DNA of 64,000 nucleotides. It comes from Ceratorhiza oryzae-sativae. Lineage: Eukaryota; Basidiomycota; Agaricomycetes; Cantharellales; Ceratobasidiaceae. The first letter of the stretch is position 1; each line of letters opens with the position of its first letter. A program made the translations under genes and the position numbers. The DNA is taken from assembly GCA_030998015.1 (NCBI GenBank), contig JARWMV010000003.1, positions 62,001 through 126,000 on the forward strand. Reading direction: 5' to 3'. Shown piece after piece: positions 35,394 to 61,167 of the stretch. Below the pieces are notes generated by a model. The model worked only from the letters and a program-made list of their open reading frames with translations. It did no database searches and had not been told where the DNA came from.

Positions 35394-36341
35394 TATATAT
35401 TTTACATCTTTTTTGCAGCCTTGAGGCTTGAGGGGTAAAACTGGGCTGTTCTGCCTGCTTTACCCCAGCTCTCCCTCCCCCCACCTCTGTTGTTACTCAT
35501 TGGCATAGACACTTTCTACACTACCTTGGACTATTCATACACTTCCCTAATTATTTAACTCACTCTATTGGTTCAGATGCCACTTATTACATCCTATTTT
35601 TCTCCTGCTACCCCCAAGCAGGCTGCAGAACAAGCTACCCAAGGCTTTGAAGAGATCTGTCACTCAATTGAGTGGGAGAAAGCATGGAAGCTTACCAAAG
35701 ATGGTGCCAGGGTGCAGCACCAGTGAGAAGCTGCTTTGGGGTGACAGAGGCAATGCTGTCAGCAACTCAACAAGGCTGAAGTGAAGCTTGGGCTTTGGAA
35801 TCCCAGGAATCTACAGAAGATTAAGGTATTGTTTCTTACCTTCTATTAACCAGTTTTCACTCACTTGTTTTATAGCCTATGGCACTTTGGAACCCATCTC
35901 CTGATCCTCAGCCATTGCCACCCCCTGCTGATCCTGACATCAATAAGGCAGCTGCTCCTTGCAAGCACCACCAAGCACCATGAACCAACTGGTATGGGCC
36001 AGTTCAATGGGAGCTCATTTCTGTGGCTGCCAAGAAGGTTGGGTTTTCAAGCCCACAAGACAACATTCACAAGTTGAAGGTCAGATCCAGTGGTACTCTT
36101 TTCAAGAACATTGAGTGAGGCACTGTTGCCCCCTGGATTAATGCTGAACAAACTGGATGGACTGAAGCAGTTCTCTCTTGGGTGGTGTGTGCCACAGAGG
36201 GTAATGCACCCTGTGTCATCAATTCTGACAAGGCTTTGGGGTGTCAACTGCTTTTGGTAAGTATTATATTGCATATCACTGATCTTTTACTGTCATTTTT
36301 ATGATTTGACCTTAGGTGATTACAATTATTGCAGCCATTGT

Positions 36342-36992
36342 TGTTATGACCTGTCAAACGGACATAACAAAATAACCAAATATTTTTACGGATTTATGGC
36401 ATTTTTCCTAAGTGGTCACATGACCTCGGTGCTTATCCGGCGCTTATGGTGGTTACCCTGAACTCGCTCCAGCATTTCTCTCCCTTGTTACTTGGAGCAA
36501 GGAGCAAGTTGTCACATGATCTCAGCACTTACAGCAGGATCACATGACCTCAGCGCCTATGGTGGTTACCCTGAACTCGCTCCAGCATTTCTCTCCATTG
36601 TTACTTGGAGTGAGGAGTGAGTTGTCATGTGATCTCGGCGCTTATGGCAGGATCATGTGACCTCAGCACCTACCTGTTGGACCTTGCACAGCTCTATAAG
36701 ATTCGGAGCTGCACAAACTTAAGACAAACAATTACCTAACCCATAGTACTGTACATAACCTGCACCTACCACAGATTGTGCTTAGATAATACATCCACAG
36801 CCACCACAGCCACAGGCATATATAAGAGGGATAAAGCAAGACTGGACACCTCAGCTTGCTTTATCTCATCAACCACCATAGACCATAGCAAACACTGTAA
36901 CTAGAACACTCAATACATAACTCATAGCACCAAACCGTCAACACAGCCACTACTTAAGTGCTTTGCAAGGAAGCATCCAGAGGGTCACAACA
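36342..36992 (+). repeat. 5' LTR of the chromovirus
   Basis: 651 bp, starts TGTTATGACC and ends GGTCACAACA. It holds two copies of a ~110-bp tandem unit (from 36451 and 36564), where the 3' LTR has one and the solo LTR at 60289 has four. Differences from the 3' LTR are mostly C/T or G/A at CpG sites. Confidence 0.9.
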
Positions 36993-37112
36993 TTATAAAG
37001 CAAGCTCTTAACTTAACTAGTGGCGAACATAAGTATACTACACAGATACTAAGGGCTGAGTACACAAGAAACCAGCTAACTCCTGTGATACATAAGAGAA
37101 CACAAAGAAACT

Positions 37113-38938: not shown

Positions 38939-39461
38939 ATGTTGGAGGACCCTGATATAACCCCTACCGCAGATGTATGTTACCTCAAGAAGTCTAGTAA
39001 TCAATCAATAATATACACTACAGTAGAGGGAATCATGGAACCAGCAAAGACGCTGATTGACTCAGGATCTTCAACCAACTTCATCGATAAGGCCTATTCA
39101 AGGGAAAAGGGGATTCCAACCACTCCCCTCAAACACAAGAAATCAATTGTGGCCATTGATGGAAATGAAATCAAGGATGCCATAGAAGAAAGGGCAGAAC
39201 TAACATGAAGTGGAAGGGAAGACACTAAAATGCTCCCTTTATGTAATGACCCTAGGTGACACAGACATAGTCCTAGGGAAAGAATGGCTTGAAGAAGCAG
39301 AACCTATCATAGATTGGAAAGACCTTACCATCTCATACCCAGACGAAATCAAGGCAAGGGCAGCAAGTGAAAGCCTACAAATCCCAGAAGAATTTAGGGA
39401 TTTTGAAGACCTTTTGGGGAAGAAGGTTTCCGAGAACTTCCACCCCACCAAGGTAACCTAG
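38939..39461 (+). pseudogene. Retropepsin-like protease region
   Basis: TLIDSGSSTNFID near 39050-39090 is the aspartic protease DSGS loop of gypsy elements. It is followed by a second strand region with DIVLGKEWLEEAEPIIDW. A TGA at 39206-39208 interrupts the frame between the two parts. Confidence 0.75.
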
Positions 39462-39469
39462 ACTTCAAA

Positions 39470-40229
39470 ATGGACCTGATCGAGGGAGCAGAGCTGCCAA
39501 AGCCTGCAAAGAGGTACAGTATGTGCCGCAGCAGAAACAAAGGCGCTCAGGGAGTACCTAGAGGAGGAACTAAGAAAGGGAAAATAAGGCCCAGCCAGTC
39601 AGTTGTAGCTGCACCCTGTTTCTATGTGAACAAAGCAGATGGAGGGCTTAGGTTGGTAGTCGACTACCGTAAGATGAATGACATCACCAAGCCAGACAGG
39701 TTTCCACTTCCAATCCAAATAGAATTGATTGAGAGACTGAAGGACGCAACCATCTATTCAAAAATGGATGTTCGATGGGGGTTCAACAATCAGGGTAAAA
39801 GAGGGAGACGAATGGAAAACAGCTTTCAGGACAGGAGAAGGCCAGTTTGAATGCTTGGTCATGCCATTCGGAGTAAAAGAAGGACCAAGAACCTTTACCA
39901 GGTTCATGATGGAAAAGTTCCGTGACATAATAGATGATTATGTGGTAATCTACATGGACGATGTACTAGTGTTTTCCAGAAACAGGGAAGAACACAGTAC
40001 AACATGTCAGGGAAGTGTTAAGAAGAATGAGGGAAAACCACCTCTTCCTCAAACCACACAAGTGTCAGTTCTTTGTGAAGGAGGTAAGCTTCATTGGAAT
40101 TGTCATATCCCCAGAAGGGATATCGATGGAAAGGAAAAGGTAAAGGCAGTTCTAGAATGGCCAGAACCTAACACAGTAAAAGAAGTCCAAGCCTTCCTAG
40201 GCTTGTGGGGTTCTATAGAAGGTGGATAG
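39470..40229 (+). pseudogene. Reverse transcriptase region
   Basis: FYVNKADGGLRLVVDYRKMN (39620-39680), then FECLVMPFGVKEGPRTFTR and the catalytic YMDD in VVIYMDDVLVFSRN near 39940-39980. This is the classic order of gypsy RT blocks. A frame change near 39785-39800 and another near 40205 break it. Confidence 0.85.
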
Positions 40230-40900
40230 AGAAGTTTAGCACCTTAGCCAAACCCCTCACAGATCTCACCAAAAAGATGTCAAATTCCTGTGGGAAAGAA
40301 AACAACAGAAGCATTTGAAGCTATAAAGAAGCAGTAGCAAGAGAACCAGTCCTAATCCACCCAAACCCAAACAGCCATACATACTGGAAACAGATGCCTC
40401 AGGAGTGGCCATGGGGGTGGTACTAAGCCAAAAGGGTGATGACAACCGATTGCATCCAATTGCCTTCCTATCAAAGAGCTTCACCCCACCAGAGAAAAAT
40501 TATGACACCTACGACAAGGAGTTGCTTGCAATTGTTAGGTCCTTAGAGCACTGGAGGTTATACTAGAAGGGACAGAGGAACCTATTGTGATATACACTGA
40601 CCATAGGAACCTCCAGTACTGGCAAAATGCCCAGATGTGGAATAGAAGGCATGCCAGATGGTATCTCACTCTGGCACCCTTCAATTTTCAGATTGTGTAT
40701 AGACCAGGGAAACTCTCACAGAAGCCAGATGCCCTTTCCAGAAGGAGCGACCATGGGGATACCCCTATGGAACCACAGATCATGATTCCAGAAGAAAGGT
40801 TCATAGGTTTCATGGCAGAAGTACAGGGGAATTTCTGGGAAGAGCTTAAAGAAGCTCAGGAAGAAGACAAATCTATCAGATCCTTAAGGCTGAGTGTGGC
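40230..40900 (+). pseudogene. RNase H region
   Basis: [16 protein letters not shown] near 40380-40430, then [20 protein letters not shown] and [12 protein letters not shown], then after a frame change near 40562 VIYTDHRNLQYW and FNFQIVYRPGKLSQKPDALS. This is the gypsy RNase H series from the first Asp to the linker before integrase. Confidence 0.8.
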
Positions 40901-41279
40901 AAATAAAGAACAACTACCACCCTCAGTACAGAAGGAATTTAGATGGTACGAAATGAAGGAGGACCTATTAAGGTATGACAATAGGCTCTACATCCCAGAT
41001 GACAAGGACTTGAGGTTGAGTCTCCTTGAGGAGTGCCATGATGCCCCTGTGGCAGGTCATCAGGGACAAGCCCAAACACTAGAATTACTATCAAGGGATT
41101 ACTACTGGCCAGGAATGAAGGCCCAAGTAAACCAATACGTGGAATCTTGTTAGAGATGTTGTGCCAGACTCCGTCTGCCAGAATCTGCCAGAATTTCCAG
41201 CCTAATTCCAGCAATTTCTGGCAATGCAGGAGCCAGAGATGGAGCAGGAATCAACCAACACCACTGGACTCCATCACAG

Positions 41280-41390
41280 GCTCCATCACATTCCTCCAAC
41301 TGGCATTCCAGCATTCTGGTGCATTCCGTGTTCTGGCATTCTGGCATTCTGGTGTGTTCTGCATTTCTGGCATTCTGGCACACATTGTTC
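41280..41390. repeat. Subterminal CTGGCAT repeats of the hAT left end
   Basis: Repeated CATTCTGGCATTCTGG-type units. Similar CTATTCTGGCTTCCTGC units lie near the other end (49350-49460). Clustered subterminal repeats are known transposase-binding sites in hAT elements; that role here is inferred. Confidence 0.5.
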
Positions 41391-42668
41391 ACTTGTTCAA
41401 ACATTCTCATGTATCTGTGATGGTGCTATATACTGTCATAAATTCACTGCATTTGAATCAAGTACCAATAACAGACTTGTTCTGACAATACCCTTAAACA
41501 ACAGATGTGTCAACAAGAGGTCTTATGATCCCATGTAGTTATGATGTTGAGAAACAGTTGTAGATTCAATTGAGTGCACACAATTGTAAGATATAACATC
41601 ACATGAAACATGCCAGAACACATTTGAAACCAAGAAAATGCTTGCACAGAACACAGGCTGGCAGACATGGAAGAAACAGATAATGTCGGAAACGTGTGAC
41701 CCTATCTCACATTAGTTAGACTACAACGTCTAGCGACAATGAGGTGCTTGTGCTTACCTATTACCTTGCTTAAAGCACTAGTGATGTTGCTGGGCAAGAG
41801 TCACACTCACCAGGGCACTGAGCGTAACAAACACAAACGGCTGACTTCGTTTGATGAGCACTATGCTTCCTGGCAGGCAGTCCCCGGGTGCTGAGAAGTG
41901 CTGGGGTGATAGAAGTGGAGGAGGCAGCTGGCATGTACGCTGATGGTCGAGAGAAAGAGATAAACTGTCTGAAGATTTTGTAAGTCAGTTTCATACCAGT
42001 TGTTGACCTGCACTACTGGACCGTGTCCTGAAGAAGCTGCCAAAGACATGCAGCGAGAATGTTAGTATTATAGTACGATGTTCGGAGGCTATAAAAAGGA
42101 CATACCAGCTTGCATGATTGCATGTGCAACCATGGCAAATGTTGAAACACCTAGCTCTATTCAATAGGCTCAACCAGTGTACGTTAAGAAACAACTAAAG
42201 AAATTACTAACCGATGTTGTCTGCACAAGGGCAGAAGCCACAACTGTGTTATGCTCACAGGTAGCGCGCTCAGCTGTCCTGAGACCGTGGCTGTTGAACA
42301 ACCGCGGACCCCCATTCCTCGTGTTCAATGTTTTCAAGCAGGAGCCCTACTTGGGCACAAGCACCCCACCCCAATCCTCGATCTAAATCAGGTCAGTGAC
42401 GTACAGAAGATTAGCATCAAGTATGCCCTACTAACCAAAGAGTGCAACCAACTATATGATACCTGACGCCAATTGTGATGAAATTATGTGGCACTGGATT
42501 TTGCTGAGTACTCCGTTAGCCATAGTGACGAACATAGCGAAACCCTACTTACAAATGCAAAGAAAGAGCATCTGAGATGGGAGGAAGGATGACGGGAGCC
42601 TGAAACACAAGCAGGACAGAGGTTGTGGTATGTGTTGTGTCTCACACTGGTCACATGACCACATTTAC

Positions 42669-45600
42669 TCACACTGTATGAATCAGGGTCGGCAAATGTG
42701 TGGTCCTAAACGTCAAAATCATAGAAGGTTCGTATATTTGTGAAGCATGAGCTGCAGACAGGTTGTAAGAATCATAAAGGATGTAAAAAAAAAGTTTAAA
42801 GATGCAAGAGAGTGTGCTAAACAACAGGGGGCGCCTTCGCCTTTGCTTTACCATTTCCAGCACCAGTCTTAAGCATCTTTGGCATAACAAGACAACCCAG
42901 CGATACAAGTCTGGCCTTGTCGTATGCACCAAGCATAGCCGAAGCCTGGATCGAGTAGGAGCTAAGGCGGTGGCAGCACTTGTTAACTGTCGCACCCATG
43001 AAAGAGAAAAGCCGCTTGACGTCAACACTTGTCGCTGAGAAAATGTCAGCTGCACATAGTTTCCCCTTGATAGACACTTACCAGGCATGCTCAGTACATC
43101 CAGTGTGAGCTGGGTAAACCCACTCCATTCGTTGCCAGCCATGCGTTGACTGTACCACCATGCCAATGGGTTGCACAGGATCGGATTTCCGTTTGCATCA
43201 GGCAGAGGTGCCATGATCGGCGCTATTTGTGGTAGGTCAAACAACACAGTACCAGATGTCTGGATACCTTACCATTCACAAACTCATGCACAGGGCATTG
43301 GGAAGAGGCTTGCCCGCTCTCTTGTCTGAAGAGATGTTGCACGAACAACTGTTTTGTATGTTAGCTGAATAAGATAAGGCCAGAGTCAAGAGCCTTACTG
43401 AGTATCCAAACTGAGAGACCACCAGCGGTGAAGAAGACAAGGTTGCTGGTTGCCCGCGTTGCTTGTAGAAGTCGCGGTAGATGTTAACGAGGGCAATTAT
43501 TGTGTCTTCAATCCATTTGGGCTCCCAATTGGACATTCGAAGGTATTTCGCACGCATGGCAGGATGACAAACTGCAAGCGAAAGGCGGTTATCTACACAG
43601 AACAAAATCAGCACTACACAAACTTACGAATAGCAAACCAGTACGCATCTGAAGTGTCAGTCTTGCTGTAGTATTCGTTTAGCTTCTGGCATGCCCGGTT
43701 GGCAGTGTGTCAGACGTAGAGGGGAAGCAAGTCGTCTTTGCAGATTTTGCCGAACATGTAGTCAAGTGAATCAAGATGAATAATAACGTCTGCAAGCATG
43801 GGGACTTTGGCGTGCGACATGACATCGGTAACAACCTGGAAAGCCTATACATGCTGTCAGCAAATTTAAGCAATTAGATATGCGAACCTGCAGCTTACAT
43901 TGAATAGTTGGTTAAGGTTCTGAATGTGCTCAAGGTCGTCTTCATTGAACTGATAGGGGCAAGGGATATTCACTTGAGGGTCGTCTTGGATTTCAAGACT
44001 ATGATGATACGATACCCATATCCATGAGCAGGGATAAATGCTATAAGAATCGACTCACATTGCTGGGAAGGTGCGCTCGCTGTCCTTTGTCATCTTACCT
44101 GTTGAATTCCAGTGTGTCTGAACGTCCCGCTGGAGGTTATGCGGGAGAGCAATCCCTAGCCTGCGACAAGCGTTGCAGAACCACTTCTTTGTGTAGGGGG
44201 AGAATTGAATTTTCTTCCCAAAGTACGTGAGCTAGGAGATTTGTGCCCAGTCAGATGTCAGGTAATAACTACAGGTAACTTGTACGTACCTTCTTCAGGA
44301 TTTGCCCAGCCCTCTTTGCTAAGCGCTCGTCGATAGACCTGGGAGTAATGGGTGGGATGTCATAATCGTCCACCTCCCTCCCAATGTTGCTTGCAAGGTC
44401 CTCGTCGTTGCCATCGCTATCAAGAGCCCATGATGAGTAGTCGTCGTCTTGGTCGTCTTCTTCGTCCTCGTTTCCAGCCTGCTGACATGCAGGGTAAGTA
44501 AAGTTTGATTGATTGCAGCAGTCTTGGCACACTAACCACTGTCTCCCCATCTTCCTGGTGCCCATCTTTGTCCATTTCCTCCTCCTCCTCCTCCTCTAAC
44601 TTGCTGCTGTCGCAAGCAATTGGCTTGCGAAATGGTTTAGTAGAGATGTTGCACCAGAAATATGCAGGAATCCGTCTCCTGCATACGGTTTCTGGCGGTT
44701 TTTTTCAATTCCTGCTCCAGCTCCGTCTCCGTCTGCCGGAAGCCGGATTCCGTACGGAATTCCGTCAGGGTTGCAGGAACTGCCGGAGTGAAGGAGTTCC
44801 TGCATATGATGATCCCTAAAAGTGCTCCGATCGTGATACTTTGTAGCTCAAAATGTGCGCGCTGACGAGCGCTTTCGAACGATATATAACACCAATTATA
44901 ATATCCCCGCGCGCGTATAATGCGACATCCTTTACATCTCAGACAGGGGGAATCAAAACCTGACATTTTTCAAAGTCACCACAACTTATTGCTCAGTAGC
45001 TCATTAAATGCGCAAAATTCCAGACATGCGATTCATATCAAAAAGTATAGGCTAGAAAATTCTGTAGCGTCTTGCGCGGCGCAATACATACTCAGAAAAT
45101 AATCCCAAACATGCGTACCTCCAAATGCACATGTATCCAAGCATATTCAGGCTTCAATAATGGTGCGATTGAGTTTCTGGGCACTGAAAACCCCCAGAAA
45201 GTTCTTCATGTTTCTGGCAGGGGGGTTGGAACAAGGTGAACCAAGCATGGTGCACCCATGTGCTGCATACCAACAGCTGAAACATGGTCAGTGATGATAG
45301 AACACTTGCTCCAGCACATTTGAGACGCACCAGGGGACCTCTAGTATGGTTTTCAAGGTCGAGGAGTCGATCTGTCTCATCAGAATTCGCTCAAACAGCC
45401 TAGTTGCTCCGGTACCGCCTCTGGTAAGCGATTTATGTCCCTGCAAGTGTTCTACCCCCCTGTTTTGTCAGTTAATAATGCTTCAAACGAGCTGATTTTT
45501 TGTATATAGCATGTAATAGATGTATCGCATCGATTGAACACAGGGAGCGATATTTGCACCGCTAGAATTGCTAGTGCCTGTGGCGCTCCTCAGGGGCTGA

Positions 45601-47019
45601 GCCCCCCTATTTCGCTGATTTCTTCTCGTAGAATGTTCCAAATGCCCGATGAATGGTACCATTGGATTCCCCTCACTGAGACGCATCGATTGATACTCAT
45701 TACGACTGAGATTGGTAAAGTCCTAAACAGGGGCTGTAAGTGCGCTTACCCCTGATTATTCTCTGAACTTGTTTAGCCAGCGATGTGGCCTATACAATTT
45801 TTTGACCCTATGTGTAATATATCGTTGGGACGCTGTGATTTTTCTGCATTTAATGGTGTATACTAAGAGTGTCTGCGATGGGTTTCAAAAAATGCTTCGC
45901 AGCTGCCAGAGCAGGAACTCCGGCATTCCTGCAGGCGCCGGAATTCCTCGGAGTCTGGCAAAATTCCGGCACCCCTGAGCTGATTCCGGCTCCGTCTCCG
46001 TCTCCTGCATGCCGGAAATATGCCAGAATAAGCGCCAGAATTCTGGCTGATTCTGGCAGACGGAGTCTGGCACGACATCTCTATGGTTTAGCAACCTCCT
46101 GTATATAGTGGTTCGCTTAATTGATAGAGTATAGGATACATAACCCACTACTCACCTGAGCACCCAGATTCAGGATGTGACACAAGCAATAAATGCAAGA
46201 CTTTCGTCCCTTGTGGCGCTTGAGTTTGAATTTGGCCAGGCGATCTAACATTGTGTTGTTGTTTGAGGCGGCATCTCCCACCATACCCCAGAACTAGGAA
46301 CTGGATGAATACTGATTGATCTTAGCTAGCATACACTTACAATATTTTCAATTCCAAACTTCTTCAACACCTTGAGCAACTTTCGGGCTAAGTTGTCACC
46401 TGTGTGCGCATCACCATCAAAACTAATGGTATAATCAGTACCACCACTCTTTGGGCCACCATGTAAACCTCTTAACTTGAGGCACTCCAAGACAAAGCGT
46501 TTGATTTTCATGGTCGAACTGACGACATCCTGATGGAACATGATGATTCCAAGGTAGTTGTAACCATTATCCAACGAATAGAGATCAAGCGCAATGTGCA
46601 TCACCCCTTGCACTCCCTGATGTTCAGTAAGCAGATTATATGGGGTTTGAATTATAGTGTGCCTTACCACCAAGTCTCCCTTGATCTTGTCTTGCATCGC
46701 ACGGTACATCAATTTGATATCAGCAGTGATTGTTGTTCAGTGGGGTTTGTGTCGACGCGCACTTGGGTGCAATAGACTGTCAAGCTAGCATACAGCCAAG
46801 GTAAGTGCATTCATGATTAGCATGTAGCACACTTATGTGCGGATCGTTTATGATGCTCAGGGGTCGTGAGCATCAGGCAACCCAGAGCGCACAAAATTCG
46901 CACACATCCCGTTCGGTCATGTTATCACCAGAGCCATGGAACCCGTGGTCACCAAGGGCGGTGTCTTGCTTGGTCGGTTTCCAGCAGTAGTGCTCCTTGT
47001 GTGTGTGGAATGCTGTCAT
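42669..47019 (-). pseudogene. hAT transposase gene, interrupted by a nested element
   Basis: Read on the minus strand with several short introns: a possible start at 47019 with a Cys/His-rich segment (HYCWKPTKQ, CEFC), then GVMHIALDLYSLDNGYNYLG, HTGDNLARKLLKVLKKFGIE, FWGMVGDAASNNNTML, and CIYCLCHILNLGAQ just before the nested element (46083). It resumes after the insertion at AKPFRKPIACDS, followed by an acidic stretch, RDVQTHWNSTGKMTK, HPAMRAKYLRMSNWEPKWIE and the C-terminal dimerisation block (NPLAWWYSQRMAGNEWSGFT, then SVDVKRLFSFMGATVNKCCH). These are hAT hallmarks in the right order. An extra stop near 43711 (before the ANRACQKLNEYYSKT stretch) and the insertion make it inactive. The true 5' end may lie further upstream, towards 48000. 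Confidence 0.75.
44641..46083. mobile_element. Non-autonomous hAT relative nested in the hAT transposase gene
   Basis: 1443 bp with tips TAGAGATGTTGCACCAGA and the reverse of TAGAGATGTCGTGCCAGA, close to the tips of the host hAT. 8-bp target duplication TGGTTTAG at 44633-44640 and 46084-46091. It contains no transposase and only short open frames, so it was probably moved by a transposase of the same family. Confidence 0.88.
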
Positions 47020-49200
47020 GTCTGAGACACCCACCTCGCGTGTTACTGTCTTTTTACACCTGATGACACTTGTAAGTATTCAAACTCTGGCTTAACAATG
47101 TGGTACTCACATCAGGCACGTCCAGATGTGCTGAGTTGGGGGTGTACCGCTCTCCCAGTTGATGACCAGGTCCGAAAACCCATTGTATGCTGTCGTTTTT
47201 GCTATGCTGATTCAGCATATCATTGCCGCTGGATACCAGTATGTAAAAAGCAATTCGACAGATAAGTTAGCCAGTTTGCTTACCGAGTTCTGTCTCTGGT
47301 TCATTCTCTTGCTGTTTCAGTTTTGTTTTCACCCGATGTGCCACGGCAAGAGCTGAACTAGCCTCGGAGAGGTGACCAGACTCGGACCAGCTGTCAGCCT
47401 CTGAGAGTGCATGCCTTGAGCCAGTGGGAGTGGACATGCATGTGCTTGATTCGTAGGGTGTTGGCCAGTGCTGTTTTGCGTTTCTCTGGATCACAATTCA
47501 GTCCTCTTCTGGAGTTACACACATTAGTCATTGTATGCATTCAGAATGCTAGACCTACCGTTGAGCGGACTAGATTCCTCTCTTCCGCGTTTACCCAGTG
47601 CCTTCATAACAGGTCGTCCCCAAGGCTCTACCAGCCTGTTTGTTGAGTGCAGGTCACAATGTACAACAACGCAACATACTAACCTATCGCAACTACTTCC
47701 TCGTTGGAGTCCATCGTCAATTCCACATGATCGGAGTATTTCACAGCAACCAAGTTCGAAACAAGCTCTATCCAGTGCTCTATGTTTGAACGACACGAGT
47801 CTGAGATGAGTGACATAGTCGAAAAGGTTTGTTTTTATAGTAATTTTTGAGCTAGACAGATACAACCAAGACACCTGCTGCGAGCAAATAATCTTGCACA
47901 TGACTGTCCACGCTGTTGTTCTTGACCATAATACCCTTGCCTCCTGGTCACATGTATTGTTTTCCCATTCGTCCACGACTGCATGGAACCTATTGGGTCA
48001 AAGGTGAGTGCGTGTCGACTGTCTGAACGCCACCATCAATGATATTTTTCAGGCGCCCTGCGGGGAACAGATACCAAGCCTGTAGTCGGTCCTTGACTCG
48101 TGTTTTCAACACTGCTGTCTATCACGTAAGTCCCGTTTATTTTTCTTAATGATTTACCACTTAATCCCCTACCTGTTCGTAGTAAGCACCCAGGATCTCG
48201 GACTCACGCAACGCGTCCCCTGGTCAGTGTACGTTGCGTGTGCTCGATTGCGCCTTTTTTCGCCTAATACCTCGACCCAAATCTGCTGACTCAACCTATC
48301 TATGAACAGACCAATCCACTGCTCTGGAGCACACTGGGAAAGGACCTCATCTTCGTGCAGGAGGTTGTTCCCTGGTATGTACTAACGTGCACGACAGCAA
48401 TCAATCCTGCATGCGCTGACATGTCATCTTTCGAGATGGATGCCAAGCTTGATACTTCAGCTGTGGACAAAACACGGCGTTGCATGGGCCCAGCCCATCC
48501 CAACTAGTTCGAACGGCAACTCAAGACAGGTGTTGCGTTTTGCAGGTACAAATTGGCTCTGTCAACACGCACTTGTACGCCTGGCATGCAGTCACCTACT
48601 GCGATGGGTTTTGGGCTAGCTCCTGTGCTCCTGTGTACTTGGACGGTAGGTTTCCAAAACATCTGCCCACTAGGCCTCTGCTTTGCACCCTATCCCACAA
48701 GTCCGGTTGCTCACACAGAACAACACAAGGTATAGTTTCTTGTTTCTTCCCAATACGGGACACGTTATCATCTGACATTCTTAATGGTATTCTACCACCC
48801 AAGGTCACAGTGGTCTCGTCACAGGTGTCCTCACCTGGCCTCATATCCCCTTGCTACACTCCTGTTCACTACGCTGAGTCTGGCCCACTTGGTGATCCTT
48901 GCAACACCTGGCGGAACATGTTGGACACAGTCAGCATCAGTTTCTTACCATCGTTCAGTGTCAGGTGGGTACCATGTGCAATTATATGTCATTTATTCTA
49001 ATATTAACTTATGCATGTATTGGATGATGGGCTGTCTGACTGCAGGCCAGCAGCAGTGTGGGTGGTCATCGTTTTCTTGACCCTCCTTTCTATATATCTG
49101 AACACGTTCGCTCTCACATTTCTTTCCTATTGTACTCTTTGTCATGTCTTGTAGCTCCATCTAATGTTGTCGTTGTGTTGAATAGCATGTATATTGTATT
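47020..49200. other. 5' part of the hAT element, unassigned
   Basis: Several splice-like sites and short frames on both strands (for example 47524-47976 minus and 48480-49001 plus) but no recognised motif. It could hold the transposase's upstream exons or a second element gene. Confidence 0.3.
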
Positions 49201-50345
49201 CAATCATAGAAATGGATAAGCTCTTTTACATGAAGTTGCATGATGCTTAGTATACTTGCCGGATTGGCTGTTGGTTATGAACCTGTGCTTATATCTTGCT
49301 GTGGCTGCTCCAGCTGCTCTTGCTTGCTGAACTCCTGTATGTTACATGGTAATTCTTGCTATTCTGGCTTCCTGCATTCCTACGTAGGTGCTTGTTCTTG
49401 CTATTCTGGCTTCCTGCGTTCCTGCATGTGACAGAATTCTTGCATTCTGGCAGGTGCTGGAATTCCATATGGAATCTGGCTTCTGGCAGCCGGAGATGGA
49501 GCTGGAGCCGGAATCGCAAAAATGCACCAGAATCCATATGCAGGAGACAGACTCCTGCATATTTCTGGCACAACATCTCTAAATCTTGTGAAACGTGTCA
49601 AAGAAGCAAAGGACACAAACAAGGCATTCCCCTGAAGCCCTTACCAATCCCATGGTTTCCATGGGCAGATGTCGCATATGATTTCATCATCAAATTACCT
49701 GTCTCAAAGGGGAACGACAGCATCTTGACAGTTGTAGATTGCTTCTCCTGGCAGGCCCATTTTGTACCATGTCTGGAGAGCACCAATGCAGAAGAACTGG
49801 CAGAAATATTCATAAGGGAGGTATGGAGACATCATGGGACCCCAGAAACCACTGTCTCAGACTGAGGGCCAACCTTTAACAGCCAATTCCTAAAAGCCCT
49901 ATACAAGGGAATTGGGACAAAGCCCAGATTCTCCACCACCTTCCATCCAGAAACAGATGGACTGTTGGAAAGAACAAATCAATGGGTAGAAGGGTTCTTA
50001 AGAACCTTCTGCAATTATAGACAAGATGATTGGGTAAAATGGTTACCCATTGCTGAATTCTGCCATAACAACCACGTAAATGCTACAACAGGACAAACCC
50101 CATTTGAAATGGTATATGGAAAAAACCCAAGATGGGTTGTCCAAGAGGGAGAAGAACTGTCTGAGGCACCTGCTGCAGACAACATGCATAATCAAATGGA
50201 AAAAGTATGGGATGAGGCAAGAGCCTCAATGGAATTACACCAACAAATGGAAAAGAAAGGGAGGGAATTCAAGGTAGGAGACAAGGTTTGGCTGCTCCTA
50301 ACAAACCTCTCATCCAAGAGACCCTCCAAGAAATTGGACAACTGA

Positions 50346-50762
50346 AAAGGGGGCCCTTTTGAAATCACAGAAAAGATCTCATCCCATGCGTATCACCTGG
50401 GCCTACCTAAAACCATATGTGTACACAATGTATTCCATGTAAATCTCCTCTCACCATTCACAGGAGATAAAGGCTTCCAAAGAAGGCAGGCCAAACCACC
50501 ACCAATCATAATGGAAGAAGGAGAGGAGGAGTATGAGGTGGACCACATTGCAAATTATGAATGGTGGAATGGCAAGCTGTTTTACCAAATCAGATGGAAG
50601 GGCTATGACCCAATAGAAGACACAATGGAACGTGCCAGCAAGTTTGCTGACATGAAAGAGGTTCTAAATGACTTGCAAAGGCACTTACCAGATGCACCAA
50701 TGCCAGTCAAGATGAGTCAGCACTCAGGTGACTTGAAAGGCAGGCCAAAGAGAACCAAATGA
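50346..50762 (+). pseudogene. Integrase C-terminus and chromodomain
   Basis: GGPFEITEKISSHAYHLGLP leads to EYEVDHIANYEWWNGKLFYQ, IRWKGYDPIEDT and MERASKF: a typical chromodomain with its aromatic positions. It marks the element as a chromovirus; such domains steer integration to marked chromatin (family knowledge). The pol frame ends at the TGA overlapping the next start (ATGA). Confidence 0.85.
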
Positions 50763-51688
50763 GGACCTGGAAAGCTTTAAAAAGAGCCATCCAGGATACC
50801 CAAGAAAGGTCAGAGCCTGCTCTACCACCTCACTTGCACCACAATACACCTGCAAAACCCCAAAACATGCCTTTCATCACTCACCCAGTCACACATCCCA
50901 ACCATTACACACCACTTGCTGAAAATCAGGTGGCCCCACTTTGGCAGCCACCCACCACTAGGCAGCCAGCACCCTACCCTGGCAGGGAAAATTGTCCTAA
51001 ACCAGGGATGTACTGCTCCAGCATGGAAGATGCCCAGAGGTATGCTGAGCAACTGTTGCCAGGGGCTAACCTAGTGTACATCCCAAAGAAGTTAAGGGAT
51101 GAAAGGAACTGGATCGACAATGACAAGTACCTGGATCCCAGGTTAGGGGTCCTGATATGGCATGGAAGCCAGAAGCCAACAACAAGAAACACCTTGCTAA
51201 GAACACTGATGTATGTTGTTGACAATATCATGGGACCAACAGTCAACATGGTGGCCAAGGCAGTGAGACAACAGAGGAGGGCCGCAGGCCAAATGGCAGA
51301 TGGGGGGGACTGGGAGGTGGAGTGCTGGGCCAAGGCATTGTTGGAAGAATGGAAGTTGACACCAGCCACACCATATGTGGGACTGCTCGAAGCAACTACC
51401 ACTGATGAGATGTTTACTGCTATCAGGACAAAGCAGGCAAACATGAGTGACTTCCAAAATTGGGTGAAGGTGCACCCAAACAAAAACACCAATTACAACA
51501 CCAATATGATGAGCCTTACATCAAGCCTAGAATCACTGGTTGTGGCTGAGGAAGAAGCCAAGCCAGTGATAAAGGAACCCACCCTGGACCCAGCTGTGGA
51601 GGAAGCCAAACAGGACTGGGACCAGTGGGAAAACAAGCTTGTCGAAGCTCTGGAGGAGGTGCCACTGTTGGAACCAGCCCCCATATGA
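50759..51688 (+). CDS. Extra ORF of the chromovirus, 309 aa, unknown
   Basis: Open throughout, unlike gag-pol. The ATG overlaps the pol stop codon by ATGA, a layout compatible with stop-restart translation. The N-terminal ~90 residues are Pro/His-rich (PPHLHHNTPAKPQNMP). The middle has GVLIWHGSQKPTTRNTLLRT and NIMGPTVNMVAKAVRQQRRA. The C-terminus is acidic (EEAKPVIKEPTLDPAVEEAK). There is no signal peptide or membrane helix, so it is not envelope-like, and no nucleic-acid enzyme motif. It may be a structural or accessory protein of the cargo region. I do not recognise it. Confidence 0.55.
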   Translation: MRTWKALKRAIQDTQERSEPALPPHLHHNTPAKPQNMPFITHPVTHPNHYTPLAENQVAPLWQPPTTRQPAPYPGRENCPKPGMYCSSMEDAQRYAEQLLPGANLVYIPKKLRDERNWIDNDKYLDPRLGVLIWHGSQKPTTRNTLLRTLMYVVDNIMGPTVNMVAKAVRQQRRAAGQMADGGDWEVECWAKALLEEWKLTPATPYVGLLEATTTDEMFTAIRTKQANMSDFQNWVKVHPNKNTNYNTNMMSLTSSLESLVVAEEEAKPVIKEPTLDPAVEEAKQDWDQWENKLVEALEEVPLLEPAPI

Positions 51689-51774
51689 CCAAGGTGCCTC
51701 TCACGGATTCTTTCTCAAATGTATAAGAGTTTTATTTTATTTTTTACATATCAAACCTAATACATTTTTGCTCT

Positions 51775-52306
51775 CTATTTACATTTGCCCTTGAGGGGCC
51801 AGGTATAGGGTTTCTTGCCCTTTTTATCCTTCTTAGTTGTCTGAACAACTGACCAGGTAGTGGGCCACAGCCAAGGGGCCTCCCCCCCTGGGAAGTCGGC
51901 CATGTAGTTCTGGAAACACCCAGAACTGGACACCACAAAAGGTGAAGCCTCTTCAAACAAGGGAGCAGAGCCCTCCTCGAAGAATTCAGCAAGAGCGGCC
52001 TGGTGAGACCACTCCTCAAAGGACTTGTAGTCCTGATCAACAAGCGCCCAGACACGCTCAAGGGTGGCCTCATGGGCCCAACCATTGAGGAGGATGCACT
52101 CTTCTACAGAGCAAGTTAGCAATGTGAGAACAACAAAGAACAAGCACACATACCTGGCACCCCACAGAAGAACCAATCCCCAACACCTTCATAGAAGTCT
52201 TCAAGGGAGGTGTCGCACACGGCATTGCAGTAGGCACAGTACTCCCCCTCAGGGGGAGACCAGCAGGTGCAGTCAAGGGGATTGTAGTTAAGGGAAATAA
52301 CGCGCA
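51775..52306 (-). CDS. Antisense spliced gene inside the chromovirus, unknown
   Basis: Starts at 52306 (MRVISLNYNPLDCTCWSPPE) and is joined across an intron of about 50 nt (GTATGTG donor, GCTAAC branch-like site, CTGTAG acceptor; about 52104-52153). It ends at 51775 with a basic tail (KKDKKGKKPYTWPLKGKCK). The first exon carries a compact cysteine cluster (C-T-C, C-A-Y-C, C), possibly zinc-binding. The second is acidic and Trp/Phe-rich (ERVWALVDQDYKSFEEW). An intron on the strand opposite to the retrotransposon RNA means it must have its own promoter. Coding is supported by openness plus clean splice signals; function is unknown. Confidence 0.45.
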
Positions 52307-52694
52307 TAGTAAAGATGGGATGAGGAAGGAAAACAACAAAAACACAAACATTAAAAAATCACAGTGCAACACAATAACTTGCACAAACATCAAAACAAAG
52401 TCTGGTCAGGTGACACCAACGGACATGTGACCATCTGCCAGAAAACAAACAACAAAGCACAGGAATCACATGACCTAGCCTAGTCACGTGAATATACGCT
52501 ATCCCCTAACTACCAGAGGGGTTGGAGAGGGGGCACCAACCAAAGTGGAGGAGTGGAGGCCCCGAGTGTAGCGAGGAATAAGGCCAACACAGGGGAACAC
52601 AGGAAGGGCACCCCTTGGAGATGTGTCATAACCAGCACAAGCCTACATCAGGAAACCATGTGATCACAACAACCAGAAAGGGTATATCTAGGGG
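52307..52694. promoter_or_regulatory. Divergent intergenic region with two short hairpins
   Basis: Lies between the outward-reading antisense gene and the Rep-like gene. CCCCT...AGGGG (52503-52521) and GGTTGG...CCAACC (52520-52541) form adjoining short stems. No TAATATTAC-type nonanucleotide was seen. It may act as a two-way promoter. Confidence 0.35.
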
Positions 52695-54056
52695 ATGCCT
52701 TTGGGGGCAAAAGGGGCTATCATCTCATGCCCTCCCCACAAGACGCATCCACCTCAAAAAACACCAACGATGCTAAGTGAAGATGGCTTGAACATGGGAA
52801 CACCCCAGCCAAACGAATCAAGCTCAGGGTGGAGGTCGCCATCACCATTGCTGGCACCCTCAGAATCAAGCCAAGCCCCCTCACCTGCTTCTACACAGCT
52901 TACACTGATGGATCACAGGTCCAAAGAGCCAACCAAAACCACACAGGCCCCCTGATTCCATGTCCAGACCAGGGCAGTGCTGCTGACCTGGTCAAAGCTA
53001 CACAATCAGCCCTCAAGTGGGCTCGCTGCCCAATACAAGGTGTTCTCCCACCACTGGCCCAATCACTGGGCAACCTTACCTGTGGTCAAACAGCACAACC
53101 TGGAGGAGCTGAACTACAACCCAACCTGGCCCCTGCATGTCCATGCCCTTTCCATCAGTCAGGAACAGAAGGGCGGGTGGAACACCCAGAACGCAGGGTT
53201 CTGGGACTTCAAGGGGCAACACCCCAACATACAGCCCAAAGACCTCAAGGACAGGCCAGGAGGCAACCCAGCAAGGGACACCTTCAACTATCTCTGGAAG
53301 GACGTTGGAGCTAATGGCAAGGAGATAGAGGATTTGATGGCAGGGGACCTGACCTTGGAAAGGTTGGAGGAGATCTTGGTGAAGGGAAAGGGTGGAAAAC
53401 AGTCAAGGATGGAGGCAGACTTGGAGGATGGGATGGAGATTGTTGCCTTGGCGATGAAACAGGAGTACTACCAGGTGTTCAAGCACCTCCACCCCCTCCA
53501 GATGGTGACAACATGGAACTTGGTACAAGCATATGCCAAGTACACATACAAGGAAGACCAGGGTTGCATGCCTGCAATCCCTGTGGAGTTAGAGGTCCTG
53601 GAAGACCAGGAGCACATCGACCAAGCAGACAGATGGTTTGCTGAGGAAGTTGAGAAGAGGGGAAGAGGGGTGCACCATTGCATCCTGGTGATAGAAGGAG
53701 AAACTGGAACGGGGAAAACAGCGTATGCACGATCCAAGGGCTGCCACAGCCAGATGTGCAATGTGTGGAATGTGGGCAACTTGTTGGAAGAGGCCAACAT
53801 TTGGATCCTGGACGACATGGTCCAGTCAAACGGGAAGTACTCGCTCAAGGCCCTGAGCCAGTACAAGGCGGACTTCACAGGCAGGTACACGCACATGAAA
53901 TCGATGAAGGTATGGCCAACAGTTATTCTGGGAAATAGCTGGTCAGCAATCATGAAGTGTTGGTTGGACATAGAGGGGGAAGAAGGGGACTTATGGGTAT
54001 CAAGAAATGTAGAATGGGTGTACGCAGGAGGAAAACCATTCTTTGTATTCCCTTAG
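52695..54056 (+). pseudogene. Geminivirus/CRESS-DNA-like Rep (HUH endonuclease + SF3 helicase) gene
   Basis: One frame of 454 codons with a single break, a TGA at 52953-52955. The first ~86 codons are Pro/Ser/Thr-rich with no domain. After the break, motif I (LLTW, near 52980), motif II with the HVH pair (near 53136), a HPNIQPKD block (near 53222), and motif III (YLWK, near 53288) form an HUH nicking domain. The SF3 part has Walker A (GETGTGKT, near 53698), Walker B (ILDD, near 53808) and motif C (VILGN, near 53925). This order is that of geminivirus-type Rep, which starts rolling-circle replication of small ssDNA genomes (family knowledge). The TGA may be a decayed Arg CGA (inference). Position inside a retrotransposon is the odd part. 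A retained function is not shown. Confidence 0.75.
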
Positions 54057-54173
54057 AATAATCTACTGTATTGTACAACTTCTGCTATGTCCATCCAAAC
54101 AGTTGGGGCATTCTGAGAAGAAGCAGACAAATCCTCACCCCTAAATAACCTCCACAACAAAGAAAAGAAAAAC

Positions 54174-54300
54174 AATCTCATGTAATGAAGAGGTTAAGGG
54201 GTCTAGCCTGACTCAGCCTGACCTCATCGAACAATACCAAATCAGCTGAAAGGTTGTTGGTTTGAGTCCAGCGCCCTTAACCTCCTTGGTGCATGAGATT
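54174..54300 (+). other. Long hairpin with tRNA-like arms after the Rep gene
   Basis: Outer stem AATCTCATG/CATGAGATT (54174-54182, 54292-54300) and inner 11-bp stem GAGGTTAAGGG/CCCTTAACCTC (54190-54200, 54274-54284). Inside, GTTGG-TTTGAGT-CCAGC (54256-54272) looks like a T-arm with a B-box, and TAGCCTGACT resembles an A-box. The D and anticodon arms are poor, so it is a tRNA-derived or tRNA-mimicking sequence, not a working tRNA. Confidence 0.45.
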
Positions 54301-54349
54301 CCTTTTGCATAAGGATCTAAACCATGTCTTGAGGTCCCCCAAGACATGT

Positions 54350-54365
54350 CCAAAGGGGGGGATAA
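54350..54365 (+). promoter_or_regulatory. Polypurine tract before the 3' LTR
   Basis: CCAAAGGGGGGGATAA directly precedes the LTR TG. It is preceded by a perfect CATGTCTTG/CAAGACATG hairpin (54323-54348). The tract would prime plus-strand DNA synthesis. Confidence 0.7.
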
Positions 54366-54921
54366 TGTTATGACCTGTCAAATGGACATAACAAAATAAC
54401 CAAATATTTTTATGGATTTATGGCATTTTTCCTAAGCAGAATAAGCCATAAACAAGGTCACGTGACCTCAGCGCTTATCCAGCGCTTACAGTGGTTACCC
54501 TGAACTCACTCCAGCATTTCTCTCCCTTGTTACTTGGAGTGAGGAGCGAGTTGTCATGTGATCTCAGTGCTTACAGCAGGATCACATGACCTCAGCACTT
54601 ACCCCTTGGACCTTGCGCAGCTCTATAAGATTCGGAGCTGCACAAACTTAAGACAAACAATTACCTAACCCATAGTACTGTACATAACCTGCACCTACCA
54701 CAGATTATGCTTAGATAATACATCTGCAGCCACTGCAGCCACAGGCATATATAAGAGGGATAAAGCAAGACTGGACACCTCAGCTTGCTTTATCTCATCA
54801 ACCACCATAGACCATAGCAAACACTGTAACTAGAACACTCAATACATACCTCATAGCACCAAACTGTCAACGCAGCCACTACTTAAGTGCTTTGCAAGGA
54901 AGCATCCAGAGGGTCATGACA
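54366..54921 (+). repeat. 3' LTR of the chromovirus
   Basis: 556 bp, starts TGTTATGACC and ends GGTCATGACA, with one copy of the ~110-bp internal unit. Otherwise collinear with the 5' LTR. Confidence 0.9.
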
Positions 54922-55847
54922 ATTGTGCTCCTACTCACTAACATGCAGAATGCCAGGTCTGTCATCACTCATGCTGTTGCTCAAAGTGTGGTTTTAACCT
55001 TTATCTGAACTGATGCACCCATGACCCTTGAGGATTCCACATTCAAGTGCTCTTGATCTTATGTGGCTCAGCTCTTATGTGACAAACTTGACTGGTCTTG
55101 GTGTGCAGTAACTCATGCTGATCAGATGCTCCCAGACAACTGGCTTGAACAATGTCTTGACTTTGGCTATTGACTAACTTGGCATATTGCTATGAACAAC
55201 ATCCCACCCAAGCTCATTATTAATGCTGATCAGACTGGAGTCTCATATCTTGGCATGGGATCTAGAACTTGGGAGTTGAAAGGGGTTTCACAGGTTTCTG
55301 CTGTCAGTCATGGTGAGAAACATCAGTTTACCCTGATGGTGGCTGTGGCTGCAGCTGGGAAACTTTTACCATTTCAAGCAATTTTTAAGGGCAAGACCAG
55401 CAATTCTCTACCATGTGCAAGCATATGGAAGCCTTGTGAACAAGCTGGCTTTTTATTCACACCAGGGGAGCCAAAACACTGGAGCACTATTGACCCCATG
55501 AAGGCAGTAAGTTATCTAATCTTATCTTGTATCTCCAGTTATCTTAACCCTTTGATAGTGGGTCAATGATGTTCTCAATCCATATCTTCAGAGTGAACAC
55601 CAACACTTGGGTCTACACTCAGATCAGAAGGCTATTTTGACCTTGGACTGTTGGGCAGTCCATTGGGGGGTGCCTTTCCAGGACTGGATGAAGCAAAAGC
55701 ATCCCTCAATCATTTTGCTCTTTGTTCCTGGTGACTGTGAGTGTTAAAATCTTTGACATTGTAGACAAGTGATTATGAATTTGGACTCTGAATTCAGGTA
55801 CCTTGGTTGCTCAACCATGCAACACTTGCATCAATCATGTGCTCAAG

Positions 55848-60288: not shown

Positions 60289-61167
60289 TGTTATGACCCG
60301 CCTAGCAGACATAACCTAACAACCGAATATTGTACAGATTTATGGCATTTTTCCCGAAGCGGAACAAACCATAAACAGGATCACATGATCTCAGCGCTTA
60401 CCCAACGATTAAGCGCCGGTGGTTACCCTGAACTCGCTCCAGCATTTCTCTCCCATGTTACTTGGAGCGAGGAGCGAGTTGTCACGTGACCTCGGCGCTT
60501 ACCCAACAATTAAGCGCCGGTGGTTACCCTGAACTCGCTCCAGTGTTTCTCTCCCATGTTACTTGGAGCGAGGAGCAAGTTGTCATGTGACCTCGGTGCT
60601 TACCCAACAATTAAGTGCTGGTGGTTACCCTGAACTCGCTCCAGCGTTTCTCTCCCATGTTACTTGGAGCAAGGAGCGAGTTGTCACGTGACCTCGGCGC
60701 TTACCCAACAATTAAGTGCCGGTGGTTACCCTGAACTCGCTCCAGCGTTTCTCTCCCATGTTACTTGGAGCAAGGAGCGAGTTGTCACGTGACCTTGGCG
60801 CTTATCCAGCGATTAAGCGCTGGGTGCTTAAGTCCAAAAGTCACATGACCCTCGGACCTCGCGCGGCTCTATAAGATTCGGAGCCGCACAAACTTAAGAC
60901 AAACAATTACCTAACCCATAGTACTGTACATAACCTACACCTACTGCAGAGTGTGCTTAGATAATACGTCCACAGCCACCGCAGCCACAGGTATATATAA
61001 GGAGGATAAAGCAAGACTGGACGCCTCAGCTTGCTTTATCTCATCAACCACCATAGACCATAGCAAACACTGTAACTAGAACGCTCAATACATACTGCAT
61101 AGCACCAAACCGTCAACGCAGCCACTACTTAAGTGCTCCACAAGGGAGCCTCCAGAGGGTCACAACA
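60289..61167 (+). mobile_element. Solo LTR of the chromovirus family (family 1)
   Basis: Starts TGTTATGACCCG, ends GGTCACAACA; target duplication CTGGA at 60284-60288 and 61168-61172. At 879 bp it is longer than the chromovirus LTRs because it has four copies of the internal tandem unit. Confidence 0.9.
60421..60824 (+). repeat. Four 101-bp tandem repeats in the solo LTR
   Basis: Units start at 60421, 60522, 60623 and 60724 with GGTTACCCTGAACTCGCTCC. Each carries TCACGTGA or, once, TCATGTGA, and the inverted pair ACTCGCTCCAG / TTGGAGCGAG. Copy number differs among LTRs (2, 1 and 4). Confidence 0.9.

What the first reader, a model, noticed from the sequence alone, without database searches (positions are those of the whole stretch)
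50759..54056. Chromovirus carrying a geminivirus/CRESS-like Rep gene and two more extra genes
Between the chromodomain and the polypurine tract of a Ty3/gypsy element bounded by a matching ATTGT duplication there are ~3.3 kb of non-retroviral genes. One has, in order, HUH motifs I-III and the SF3 Walker A, Walker B and motif C of a rolling-circle Rep. Rep-like relics in fungal genomes are known in principle; a Rep gene as cargo of an LTR retrotransposon, with a fixed partner ORF and an antisense gene, is something I do not know to be described. Either an ssDNA element inserted into a retroelement, or the retroelement took it up and spreads it.
Basis: partly seen in the sequence, partly recalled or inferred. 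Interest (0 to 1): 0.9.

Follow-up and report, generated by a model that had tools for sequence, protein, structure and literature searches.

The report
Fungal retrotransposon carrying a virus-type Rep
A family of fungal jumping genes that copy themselves through RNA also carries, in copy after copy, a gene resembling the DNA-replication starter of small circular DNA viruses plus two partner genes, which suggests a genetic parasite that may combine two very different ways of copying itself.

Summary
Confirmed and extended. The window holds one decayed copy (36342-54921) of a Ty3/gypsy chromovirus. Complete relatives are about 10 kb: LTR, gag, pol with chromodomain, ORF2, an antisense gene with an intron, an intergenic region, a Rep-like gene, LTR. 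The Rep-like gene is at no fewer than 116 loci of the 48.8-Mb genome (union of two truncated searches); the named protein relatives are all from Ceratobasidium isolates. The cargo is not a one-off insertion. Pol, cargo and LTR are colinear in 18 of 20 stretches read (in 2 a nested element fills the pol side). Cargo-bearing elements have 5-bp target duplications in 8 of 13 copies with both ends readable, plus the window copy. A sister chromovirus only 66% identical in pol has the same cargo. The Rep gene is under purifying selection (dN/dS about 0.13 between lineages). It has HUH motifs I-III, Walker A/B and motif C in order. The geminivirus Rep central-domain profile matches only below its cut-off; no canonical nonanucleotide was found in two copies; structure prediction failed. 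So: an old, selectively kept Rep-like cargo of an LTR retrotransposon. That Rep replicates circular cDNA is inference. Closest precedent: rotifer Terminons.

The parts
36337..36341 (.). 5-bp target site duplication, left (ATTGT)
36342..36994 (+). 5' LTR (TGTTATGACC...)
   Evidence: blastn to complete copy L026
36995..38890 (+). leader and gag region (decayed; an open relative in L016 encodes a 613-aa Gag with Ty3_capsid and Retrotrans_gag matches); 38137-38890 has no counterpart in L026
38891..41150 (+). pol, first part (PR, RT, RH)
   Evidence: 97% to L026; domains from the 1147-aa Pol of L020
41151..49581 (.). foreign insert inside pol, hAT-like ends (8-bp repeat AATCTTGT, TIR TAGAGATGTTGT); not part of the element
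49582..50762 (+). pol, last part (integrase, SH3_Tf2-1, chromodomain)
50867..51688 (+). cargo ORF2 from the ATG shared with L018 and L026 (frame open from 50732); no relative outside this genome found
51775..52103 (-). cargo antisense gene, exon 2
   Evidence: ORF; gene model from relatives
52104..52153 (-). intron of the antisense gene (50 nt, as in 9 relatives)
   Evidence: window coordinates read by hand
52154..52307 (-). cargo antisense gene, exon 1 (Cys-rich)
   Evidence: window coordinates read by hand
52467..52635 (.). conserved non-coding block with G-rich repeats between the divergent genes; candidate Rep-binding/origin or promoter region
52770..54056 (+). Rep-like gene (HUH + SF3 motifs); this copy has an in-frame stop at 52953-52955
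54188..54300 (+). tRNA-like long hairpin with a B-box-like GGTTTGAGTCC
   Evidence: sequence; fold of the same region in L026 z -4.4
54353..54365 (+). polypurine tract
   Evidence: sequence
54366..54921 (+). 3' LTR
54922..54926 (.). 5-bp target site duplication, right (ATTGT)

Best explanation
It is a lineage of Ty3/gypsy chromoviruses (self-priming type by sequence) in Ceratobasidium-type fungi that long ago gained, between the chromodomain and the polypurine tract, a cassette of three genes and a conserved control region, one gene being a Rep-like HUH endonuclease with an SF3 ATPase. Shown: the cassette is inside elements that inserted as units with target duplications, it was present before a 66% split in pol, and its Rep and antisense genes are kept by selection between transpositions. 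Inferred, well supported: it passes through RNA. Inferred, not shown: Rep is made from its own promoter, binds the conserved G-rich block in the intergenic region, nicks the circular DNA forms that LTR elements leave in the nucleus, and unwinds them for rolling-circle synthesis by host polymerase, giving more DNA copies to transcribe or integrate. The antisense gene and ORF2 would be accessory proteins of this phase.
For: Fixed cargo: at least 116 Rep loci. Of the 40 best-matching pol ends, 29 have a listed Rep downstream within 15 kb; of the other 11, 10 have ORF2 directly downstream and the eleventh, at a contig end, reads into ORF2, antisense gene and part of the intergenic region. Unit transposition: 5-bp duplications ATCAG, GATTT, ATGCC, ACTGG, GAAGG, TGCTA, TATGC, CCAGT in 8 of 13 copies. 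Age: sister element with 66% pol identity has ORF2 (43% aa), antisense gene, intergenic block and Rep (71% aa). RNA passage: the sister's Rep has a 61-nt GT-AG gap, read as an intron, at the place where unnamed homologues P0027 and P0050 carry 24 extra residues; the main family lacks it precisely. Mosaic identity along copies (96-100% in pol, 64-98% in segments of the cargo) fits template switching. Selection: Rep dN/dS median 0.13 over pairs under 92% identity among 19 copies, 0.17-0.19 for the most divergent pairs; antisense gene 0.16-0.28 in the 9 of 15 pairs under 93% identity; Rep against sister dN 0.19 with saturated dS. His-x-His, Tyr, Lys, and the GKT and DD residues of Walker A and B are conserved at 93-100% of rows with a residue there. 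The intergenic block is 72-77% identical to the sister over three 60-column windows, flanking non-coding windows mostly 42-64%.
Against: No Pfam family passes its cut-off for the Rep, and chance-like families reach similar E-values (Jiv90 0.0048, P53_TAD 0.0052) to the second-best Gemini_AL1_M match. The genome search with PF08283 gave 3 weak matches, none at a Rep locus. No solved-structure match by sequence. AlphaFold models are unusable (pLDDT 33 and 46) and Foldseek returned nothing relevant. The CRESS nonanucleotide is absent from the two copies tested, and the intergenic block does not fold better than shuffles. No expression or circular-DNA data. 5 of 13 copies lack matching duplications. 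Intron gain in the sister, instead of loss in the main family, is not excluded.
Confidence: 0.5

Rival explanations
1. The cassette is fixed cargo, but Rep is used as a regulator rather than as a replicase: it binds the shared promoter and/or host cell-cycle or replication proteins to create conditions good for reverse transcription and integration.
For: The conserved block lies between divergent genes and contains CACGTGA-like sequences, as a two-way promoter might; no nonanucleotide and no excess folding.
Against: Nuclease and ATPase motif residues are conserved, more than a pure DNA binder needs.
Confidence: 0.25
2. The cassette is a whole captured CRESS-like replicon (Rep, two further genes, control region) that still can replicate by itself and uses the LTR element only as a vehicle.
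For: Layout with Rep and another gene diverging from one non-coding region, as in many CRESS genomes (recalled).
Against: Rep is followed by this element's LTR in 20 of 20 stretches and also in L058 and L059; no relative in the viral collection; no capsid family matched for ORF2 or the antisense protein.
Confidence: 0.1
3. The protein is not a Rep: an unrelated P-loop protein with chance resemblance to HUH motifs.
For: No family model above cut-off, no structure; nSTAND3, a P-loop family, was listed for 13 of 21 members, more than Gemini_AL1_M.
Against: Six ordered motifs, 0 of 200,000 shuffles; Gemini_AL1_M listed for 8 of 21 members, aligned in the best ones over nearly its whole length up to Walker A.
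Confidence: 0.07
4. An ssDNA element or gene simply inserted once into one retroelement copy (no cargo).
For: Would fit a single locus seen in isolation.
Against: Same junctions in many copies, target duplications around whole elements, same cargo in a 66% sister.
Confidence: 0.01
5. Rep was domesticated by the fungus and the retroelement is incidental.
For: Purifying selection.
Against: Stop density is alike in listed Rep and pol copies (3.0 and 3.4 per 1000 codons; both lists hold only the best matches), and no Rep outside the element was found among those whose surroundings were read.
Confidence: 0.03

Closest known systems
Terminons (giant Penelope-like retroelements at rotifer telomeres; review PMC6431247, passages and section 8 read)
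   Same: A reverse-transcriptase element carrying a rolling-circle Rep ORF among accessory ORFs; that review says association with Rep may point to circular intermediates.
   Different: Terminons are endonuclease-deficient PLEs with hammerhead ribozymes, not LTR elements with integrase; here Rep, ORF2, antisense gene and control region form a fixed cassette with measured purifying selection on Rep and antisense gene.
Geminivirus-like Rep genes and the Rep-bearing TIR transposon of Tuber melanosporum (Liu et al. 2011, PMC3198968, passages read)
   Same: Geminivirus-like Rep genes multiplied in a fungal genome as part of a repeat.
   Different: There an element with 37-bp TIRs, a transposase gene and no obvious target duplication; here an LTR retrotransposon with target duplications and signs of RNA passage.
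Tf1/sushi-type chromoviruses (recalled)
   Same: PR-RT-RH-IN order, SH3_Tf2-1 and chromodomain at the end of Pol, 5-bp duplications, self-priming-type sequence.
   Different: About 3.7 kb of extra genes between chromodomain and 3' LTR; a cargo-less chromovirus nested in L010 ends its pol inside the LTR.
LTR elements with extra or antisense ORFs (bdelloid rotifer elements, PMC5408684, listing and a term search; plant Retand, PMC11963269, listing only)
   Same: Extra ORFs in LTR elements, downstream of pol or antisense (as far as the listing and the Terminon review say).
   Different: The word Rep does not occur in the rotifer paper; here the antisense gene has a GT-AG intron.
Helitrons (recalled; described in passages of PMC6431247)
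   Same: Rolling-circle Rep plus helicase inside a transposable element.
   Different: DNA transposons with a fused RepHel protein and no reverse transcriptase.

Membership tests
Ty3/gypsy chromovirus | PR-RT-RNaseH-integrase order in Pol | tested here: met
   L020 1147-aa Pol, domains in order; integrase core rve 28.6 bits is under its cut-off of 32.6, the other main domains are over theirs
Ty3/gypsy chromovirus | Chromodomain at the C-terminus of integrase | tested here: met
   Significant (E 2.2e-5; 0.00047) and in the right place, but just under the cut-off of 25.1 bits (24.7 and 20.5); 35.7-37 bits in the cargo-less relatives
Ty3/gypsy chromovirus | LTRs TG...CA with short target duplication | tested here: met
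   8 of 13 copies with both ends, plus window copy
Ty3/gypsy chromovirus | Self-priming sequence after the 5' LTR (Tf1 type) | tested here: inconclusive
   12-nt complementarity between post-LTR ATAAAGCAAGCT and LTR AGCTTGCTTTAT read in L026; function not tested
CRESS/geminivirus-type Rep | HUH motifs I, II, III and SF3 Walker A, B, motif C in order | tested here: met
   motif names and forms recalled
CRESS/geminivirus-type Rep | Geminivirus Rep sequence (GRS)-like block between motifs II and III | tested here: inconclusive
   FWDFEGxHPNI is conserved at the right place, but the GRS form is recalled and was not compared with real GRS sequences
CRESS/geminivirus-type Rep | Curated Pfam Rep model above cut-off | tested here: not met
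   Gemini_AL1_M best 19.5 bits of 24, in P0015; no match in P0001, P0002. Genome search: PF08283 3 weak matches, none over cut-off, none at a Rep locus; PF00799 none; neither rang in any control genome
CRESS/geminivirus-type Rep | HUH and SF3 folds | tested here: inconclusive
   two low-confidence models, no usable structural match
CRESS/geminivirus-type Rep | Origin with NANTATTAC nonanucleotide in a stem-loop | tested here: not met
   0 matches in L026 and L018; no excess folding; a different origin sequence is not excluded
CRESS/geminivirus-type Rep | Site-specific ssDNA nicking and ATP-dependent unwinding | not testable with these tools
   needs biochemistry
Terminon | PLE-type RT, hammerhead ribozyme, telomeric repeats | tested here: not met
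   gypsy-type Pol with integrase; no Rfam match of any kind in L026; telomeric repeats not tested

The most novel reading that the evidence does not exclude
A retrotransposon that alternates between two replication modes: reverse transcription of RNA through its LTR machinery, and rolling-circle DNA replication of its circular DNA driven by its own Rep from an unconventional origin in the conserved intergenic block, that is, a natural hybrid of an LTR retroelement and an ssDNA replicon.
Probability: 0.35. Interest if true: 0.95.

Novelty: new variant of a known kind. Interest (0 to 1): 0.85.

Why it matters
LTR retrotransposons and Rep-encoding ssDNA replicons are treated as separate replication strategies. 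A selectively maintained Rep in many LTR elements gives a concrete system for asking whether retroelement circular DNA, usually seen as a dead end, can be a replicating intermediate. It also suggests a route by which CRESS-type Rep genes spread in fungal genomes, through RNA. A review made the same kind of speculation for Terminons (PMC6431247).

Tried and rejected
Structure route: AlphaFold with 21 and then 52 aligned family members gave mean pLDDT 33 and 46; Foldseek with the second model against PDB and BFVD gave nothing at E <= 0.001. Not used as evidence either way.

Looking for known Reps to compare profile against profile: a motif pattern in viral contigs found 5 contigs; ORFs were listed only in L055 (first 1200 bases) and L057, with no Rep-like protein seen there; L053, L054 and L056 were not read. 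Family searches of the genome with PF00799 and PF08283 found nothing above cut-off, and neither family rang in the control genomes. A tblastn search of phage records and a search of viral contigs found no relative. So no bridge to named Reps beyond the sub-threshold Pfam matches.

Origin idea: a CCCC...GGGG loop holding TAACTACC looked like a hairpin origin, but folding is no better than shuffles and the sister does not keep the loop. Apparent compensatory changes next to it lie at CpG sites and fit deamination; rejected as covariation (read by eye).

tRNA gene downstream of Rep: ARAGORN (6 loci, the window, and with introns allowed on 2 pieces) found none; Rfam found none in L026.

Host domestication: tested by stop density, Rep against pol; alike (111 of the 112 Rep rows were entered, 360 codons assumed per row; 40 pol rows of 1826 candidates).

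Bias to tell: all 20 ten-kb copies were picked because one search showed no stop in their Rep frame, so they say nothing about how often Rep is intact. In one search, 28 of 98 listed loci have a full-length frame without stop (counted by eye). For dN/dS 19 of those 20 copies were used (L028 dropped, shorter frame; window copy not used). For the antisense gene 22 sequences were tried: 10 gave no exon-1 match, 3 no splice match, 2 too short a frame, 1 (L013) no stop, 6 were used.

Literature: searches, 103 of an open-access library listed no paper whose title or abstract start reports an LTR retrotransposon with a Rep gene. Several had far more matches than were listed; subscription papers and preprints are not covered.
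Full report
WHAT IS THERE. The window lies in an unnamed 48.8-Mb genome. The protein relatives of its Rep-like gene that bear a name are 'hypothetical proteins' of Ceratobasidium isolates; the rest come from unnamed entries. So the host is most likely a Ceratobasidium-type basidiomycete (inference). The window copy runs from 36342 to 54921 between ATTGT duplications. Its pol is split by an 8.4-kb insert with hAT-like ends.

THE ELEMENT. L026 is a copy with two LTRs of about 783 bp, 95% identical. Other copies keep single genes open: a 613-aa Gag with Retrotrans_gag and Ty3_capsid matches (L016) and an 1147-aa Pol with protease, RT, RNase H, integrase, SH3_Tf2-1 and chromodomain (L020). Shortly after the LTR stands ATAAAGCAAGCT, complementary to AGCTTGCTTTAT inside the LTR (read), as in self-priming Tf1-like elements (recalled).

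THE CARGO IS PART OF THE ELEMENT. Twenty 10-kb stretches around Rep copies, all picked because one search showed no stop in their Rep frame, were compared with L026. In 18 pol, cargo and LTR are colinear apart from insertions and deletions. In L010 and L022 another element takes up the pol side of the stretch. In all 20 the Rep is followed by this family's LTR. Two genome searches list 112 and 98 Rep loci, 116 in union, both truncated. Starting instead from pol: the 40 scored matches to the pol end (of 162 candidates) have a listed Rep downstream in 29 cases, 26 at 2.2-2.6 kb and 3 at 8-11 kb. Of the 11 others, 10 have ORF2 directly downstream (matched by eye). One of these was read and runs into a Rep (L052; also listed); another has a Rep listed about 2.2 kb on; the remaining 8 were not read further. 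The eleventh is at a contig end and reads into ORF2, antisense gene and part of the intergenic region (L060). None was shown to lack the cargo.

IT TRANSPOSES AS A UNIT. Both outer ends could be read in 13 copies: 8 have perfect 5-bp duplications, 5 do not. LTR pairs of 7 of the 8 are 93-98% identical, differing mostly by transitions, so insertions are fairly recent but decaying.

IT IS OLD. A pol only 66% identical (C20:288275-291697) is followed by the same order of genes: an ORF2 relative (43% aa), the antisense gene (58% and 42% in two pieces), the intergenic block, Rep (71% over 343 residues with one internal stop, another stop before that), a tRNA-like hairpin, purine tract and LTR (L058). 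A chromovirus nested in L010 has a pol 40% identical that ends inside its LTR, without cargo; a like 1180-aa pol (40%) precedes the cargo in L022, probably nested too. So the cargo was gained before the 66% split and is not general to chromoviruses.

RNA PASSAGE. The sister's Rep is interrupted by a 61-nt GT-AG stretch inside one arginine-site codon, read as an intron (my reading; the frame shift there agrees). Homologues P0027 and P0050 show 24 extra residues at the same place. The main family has neither; the two sides join exactly. Precise loss of a sense-strand intron is what reverse transcription of spliced RNA does; gain on the other side is possible but less simple. The antisense gene, by contrast, keeps a 50-nt GT-AG intron in all 9 copies where my pattern found both splice sites (of 22 sequences tried), as expected when only the sense RNA is copied. 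Copies are mosaics: L026 against L018 is 96-100% identical through pol, 66-80% at the ends of ORF2 and of the antisense gene, 94-98% over the intergenic region, then 84-94% in Rep and 64% after it. That fits template switching between packaged RNAs.

SELECTION. Nineteen intact Rep frames give 171 pairs, median dN/dS 0.22, 0.13 for pairs under 92% identity, 0.17-0.19 for the most divergent ones. The antisense gene gives 0.16-0.28 in the 9 of 15 pairs under 93% identity. Against the sister, Rep dN is 0.19 with synonymous sites saturated. Stop density in Rep copies (3.0 per 1000 codons, 111 rows, approximate) is like that of pol (3.4, 40 rows), both from lists of best matches. Selection therefore seems to act on active elements, not on resident copies.

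IS IT A REP? For: motif I (LLTWS), II (LHxHAL), III (YLWK), Walker A, Walker B and motif C in the order of geminivirus-type Reps, with a GRS-like FWDFEGxHPNI between II and III (names and forms recalled). His, Tyr, Lys and the GKT and DD residues are conserved in 93-100% of rows with a residue there, in a 52-sequence alignment. The Pfam model Gemini_AL1_M was listed for 8 of 21 family members; the best scores were E 0.001 (P0015) and 0.0045 (P0035), covering model positions 11-106 of 107 and ending at Walker A. Against: none reaches the curated cut-off of 24 bits (best 19.5); P0001 and P0002 from this genome show no match; a P-loop family, nSTAND3, was listed for more members (13 of 21), and unrelated families reach E 0.005. 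PF08283 in the genome search gave 3 weak matches, none at a Rep locus. No solved-structure match, no usable model. I put the chance that it is a true HUH/SF3 Rep at about 0.9.

WHAT IT DOES. The conserved intergenic block, about 170 bp with G-rich repeats, is 72-77% identical to the sister over three 60-column windows, as high as much of the Rep coding sequence, where synonymous sites are saturated; flanking non-coding windows are mostly 42-64%. It behaves as a cis element. It lacks NANTATTAC in two copies and extra folding, so it is either an origin of another type or a shared promoter. Conservation of both nuclease and ATPase residues favours replication over mere binding. The best guess is rolling-circle amplification of circular element DNA, confidence 0.5 for the whole account; the architecture itself I hold at about 0.97.

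PRECEDENT. Review PMC6431247 (passages and section 8 read) reports Rep ORFs in Penelope-like Terminons and suggests circular intermediates. PMC3198968 (passages read) reports a geminivirus-like Rep in a TIR element of Tuber and Rep-like sequences in Laccaria. No LTR retrotransposon with Rep showed in the listings of nine searches. Hence 'new variant of a known kind': Rep in a retroelement is known, this pairing and its fixed, selected cassette appear new.

Noticed in passing
window 41151-49581: 8.4-kb insert in pol flanked by the 8-bp repeat AATCTTGT with ends TAGAGATGTTGT/ACAACATCTCTA, hAT-like; it contains further inverted repeats (44641-44763 and 49459-49581).
   Followed up: partly
window 60289-61167: A second LTR of the same family, with no element body matched beside it in the window.
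   Followed up: no
window 54188-54300; L026 8918-9045; L058 about 3480-3600: Long tRNA-like hairpin with a B-box-like sequence just before the polypurine tract, by eye also in the sister element; in L026 it folds better than shuffles (z -4.4) but is not called as a tRNA.
   Followed up: partly
L026 37-51 and 9893-9907: A 15-bp direct repeat TTCTTGGTTACATTG flanks this copy instead of the usual 5-bp duplication (read).
   Followed up: no
L059 (C143:11600-14600): Two Rep cassettes head to tail with one LTR between them, the second unit lacking gag, pol and the start of ORF2.
   Followed up: partly
L026 166-515; L018 9190-9637: LTRs hold varying numbers of an about 100-bp tandem unit, so LTR length differs even within one element.
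   Followed up: no
L010 526-7472 (oriented): A cargo-less chromovirus with about 380-bp LTRs and an open 1180-aa Pol nested just upstream of Rep in a Rep-bearing copy; a similar 1180-aa Pol lies before the cargo in L022.
   Followed up: partly
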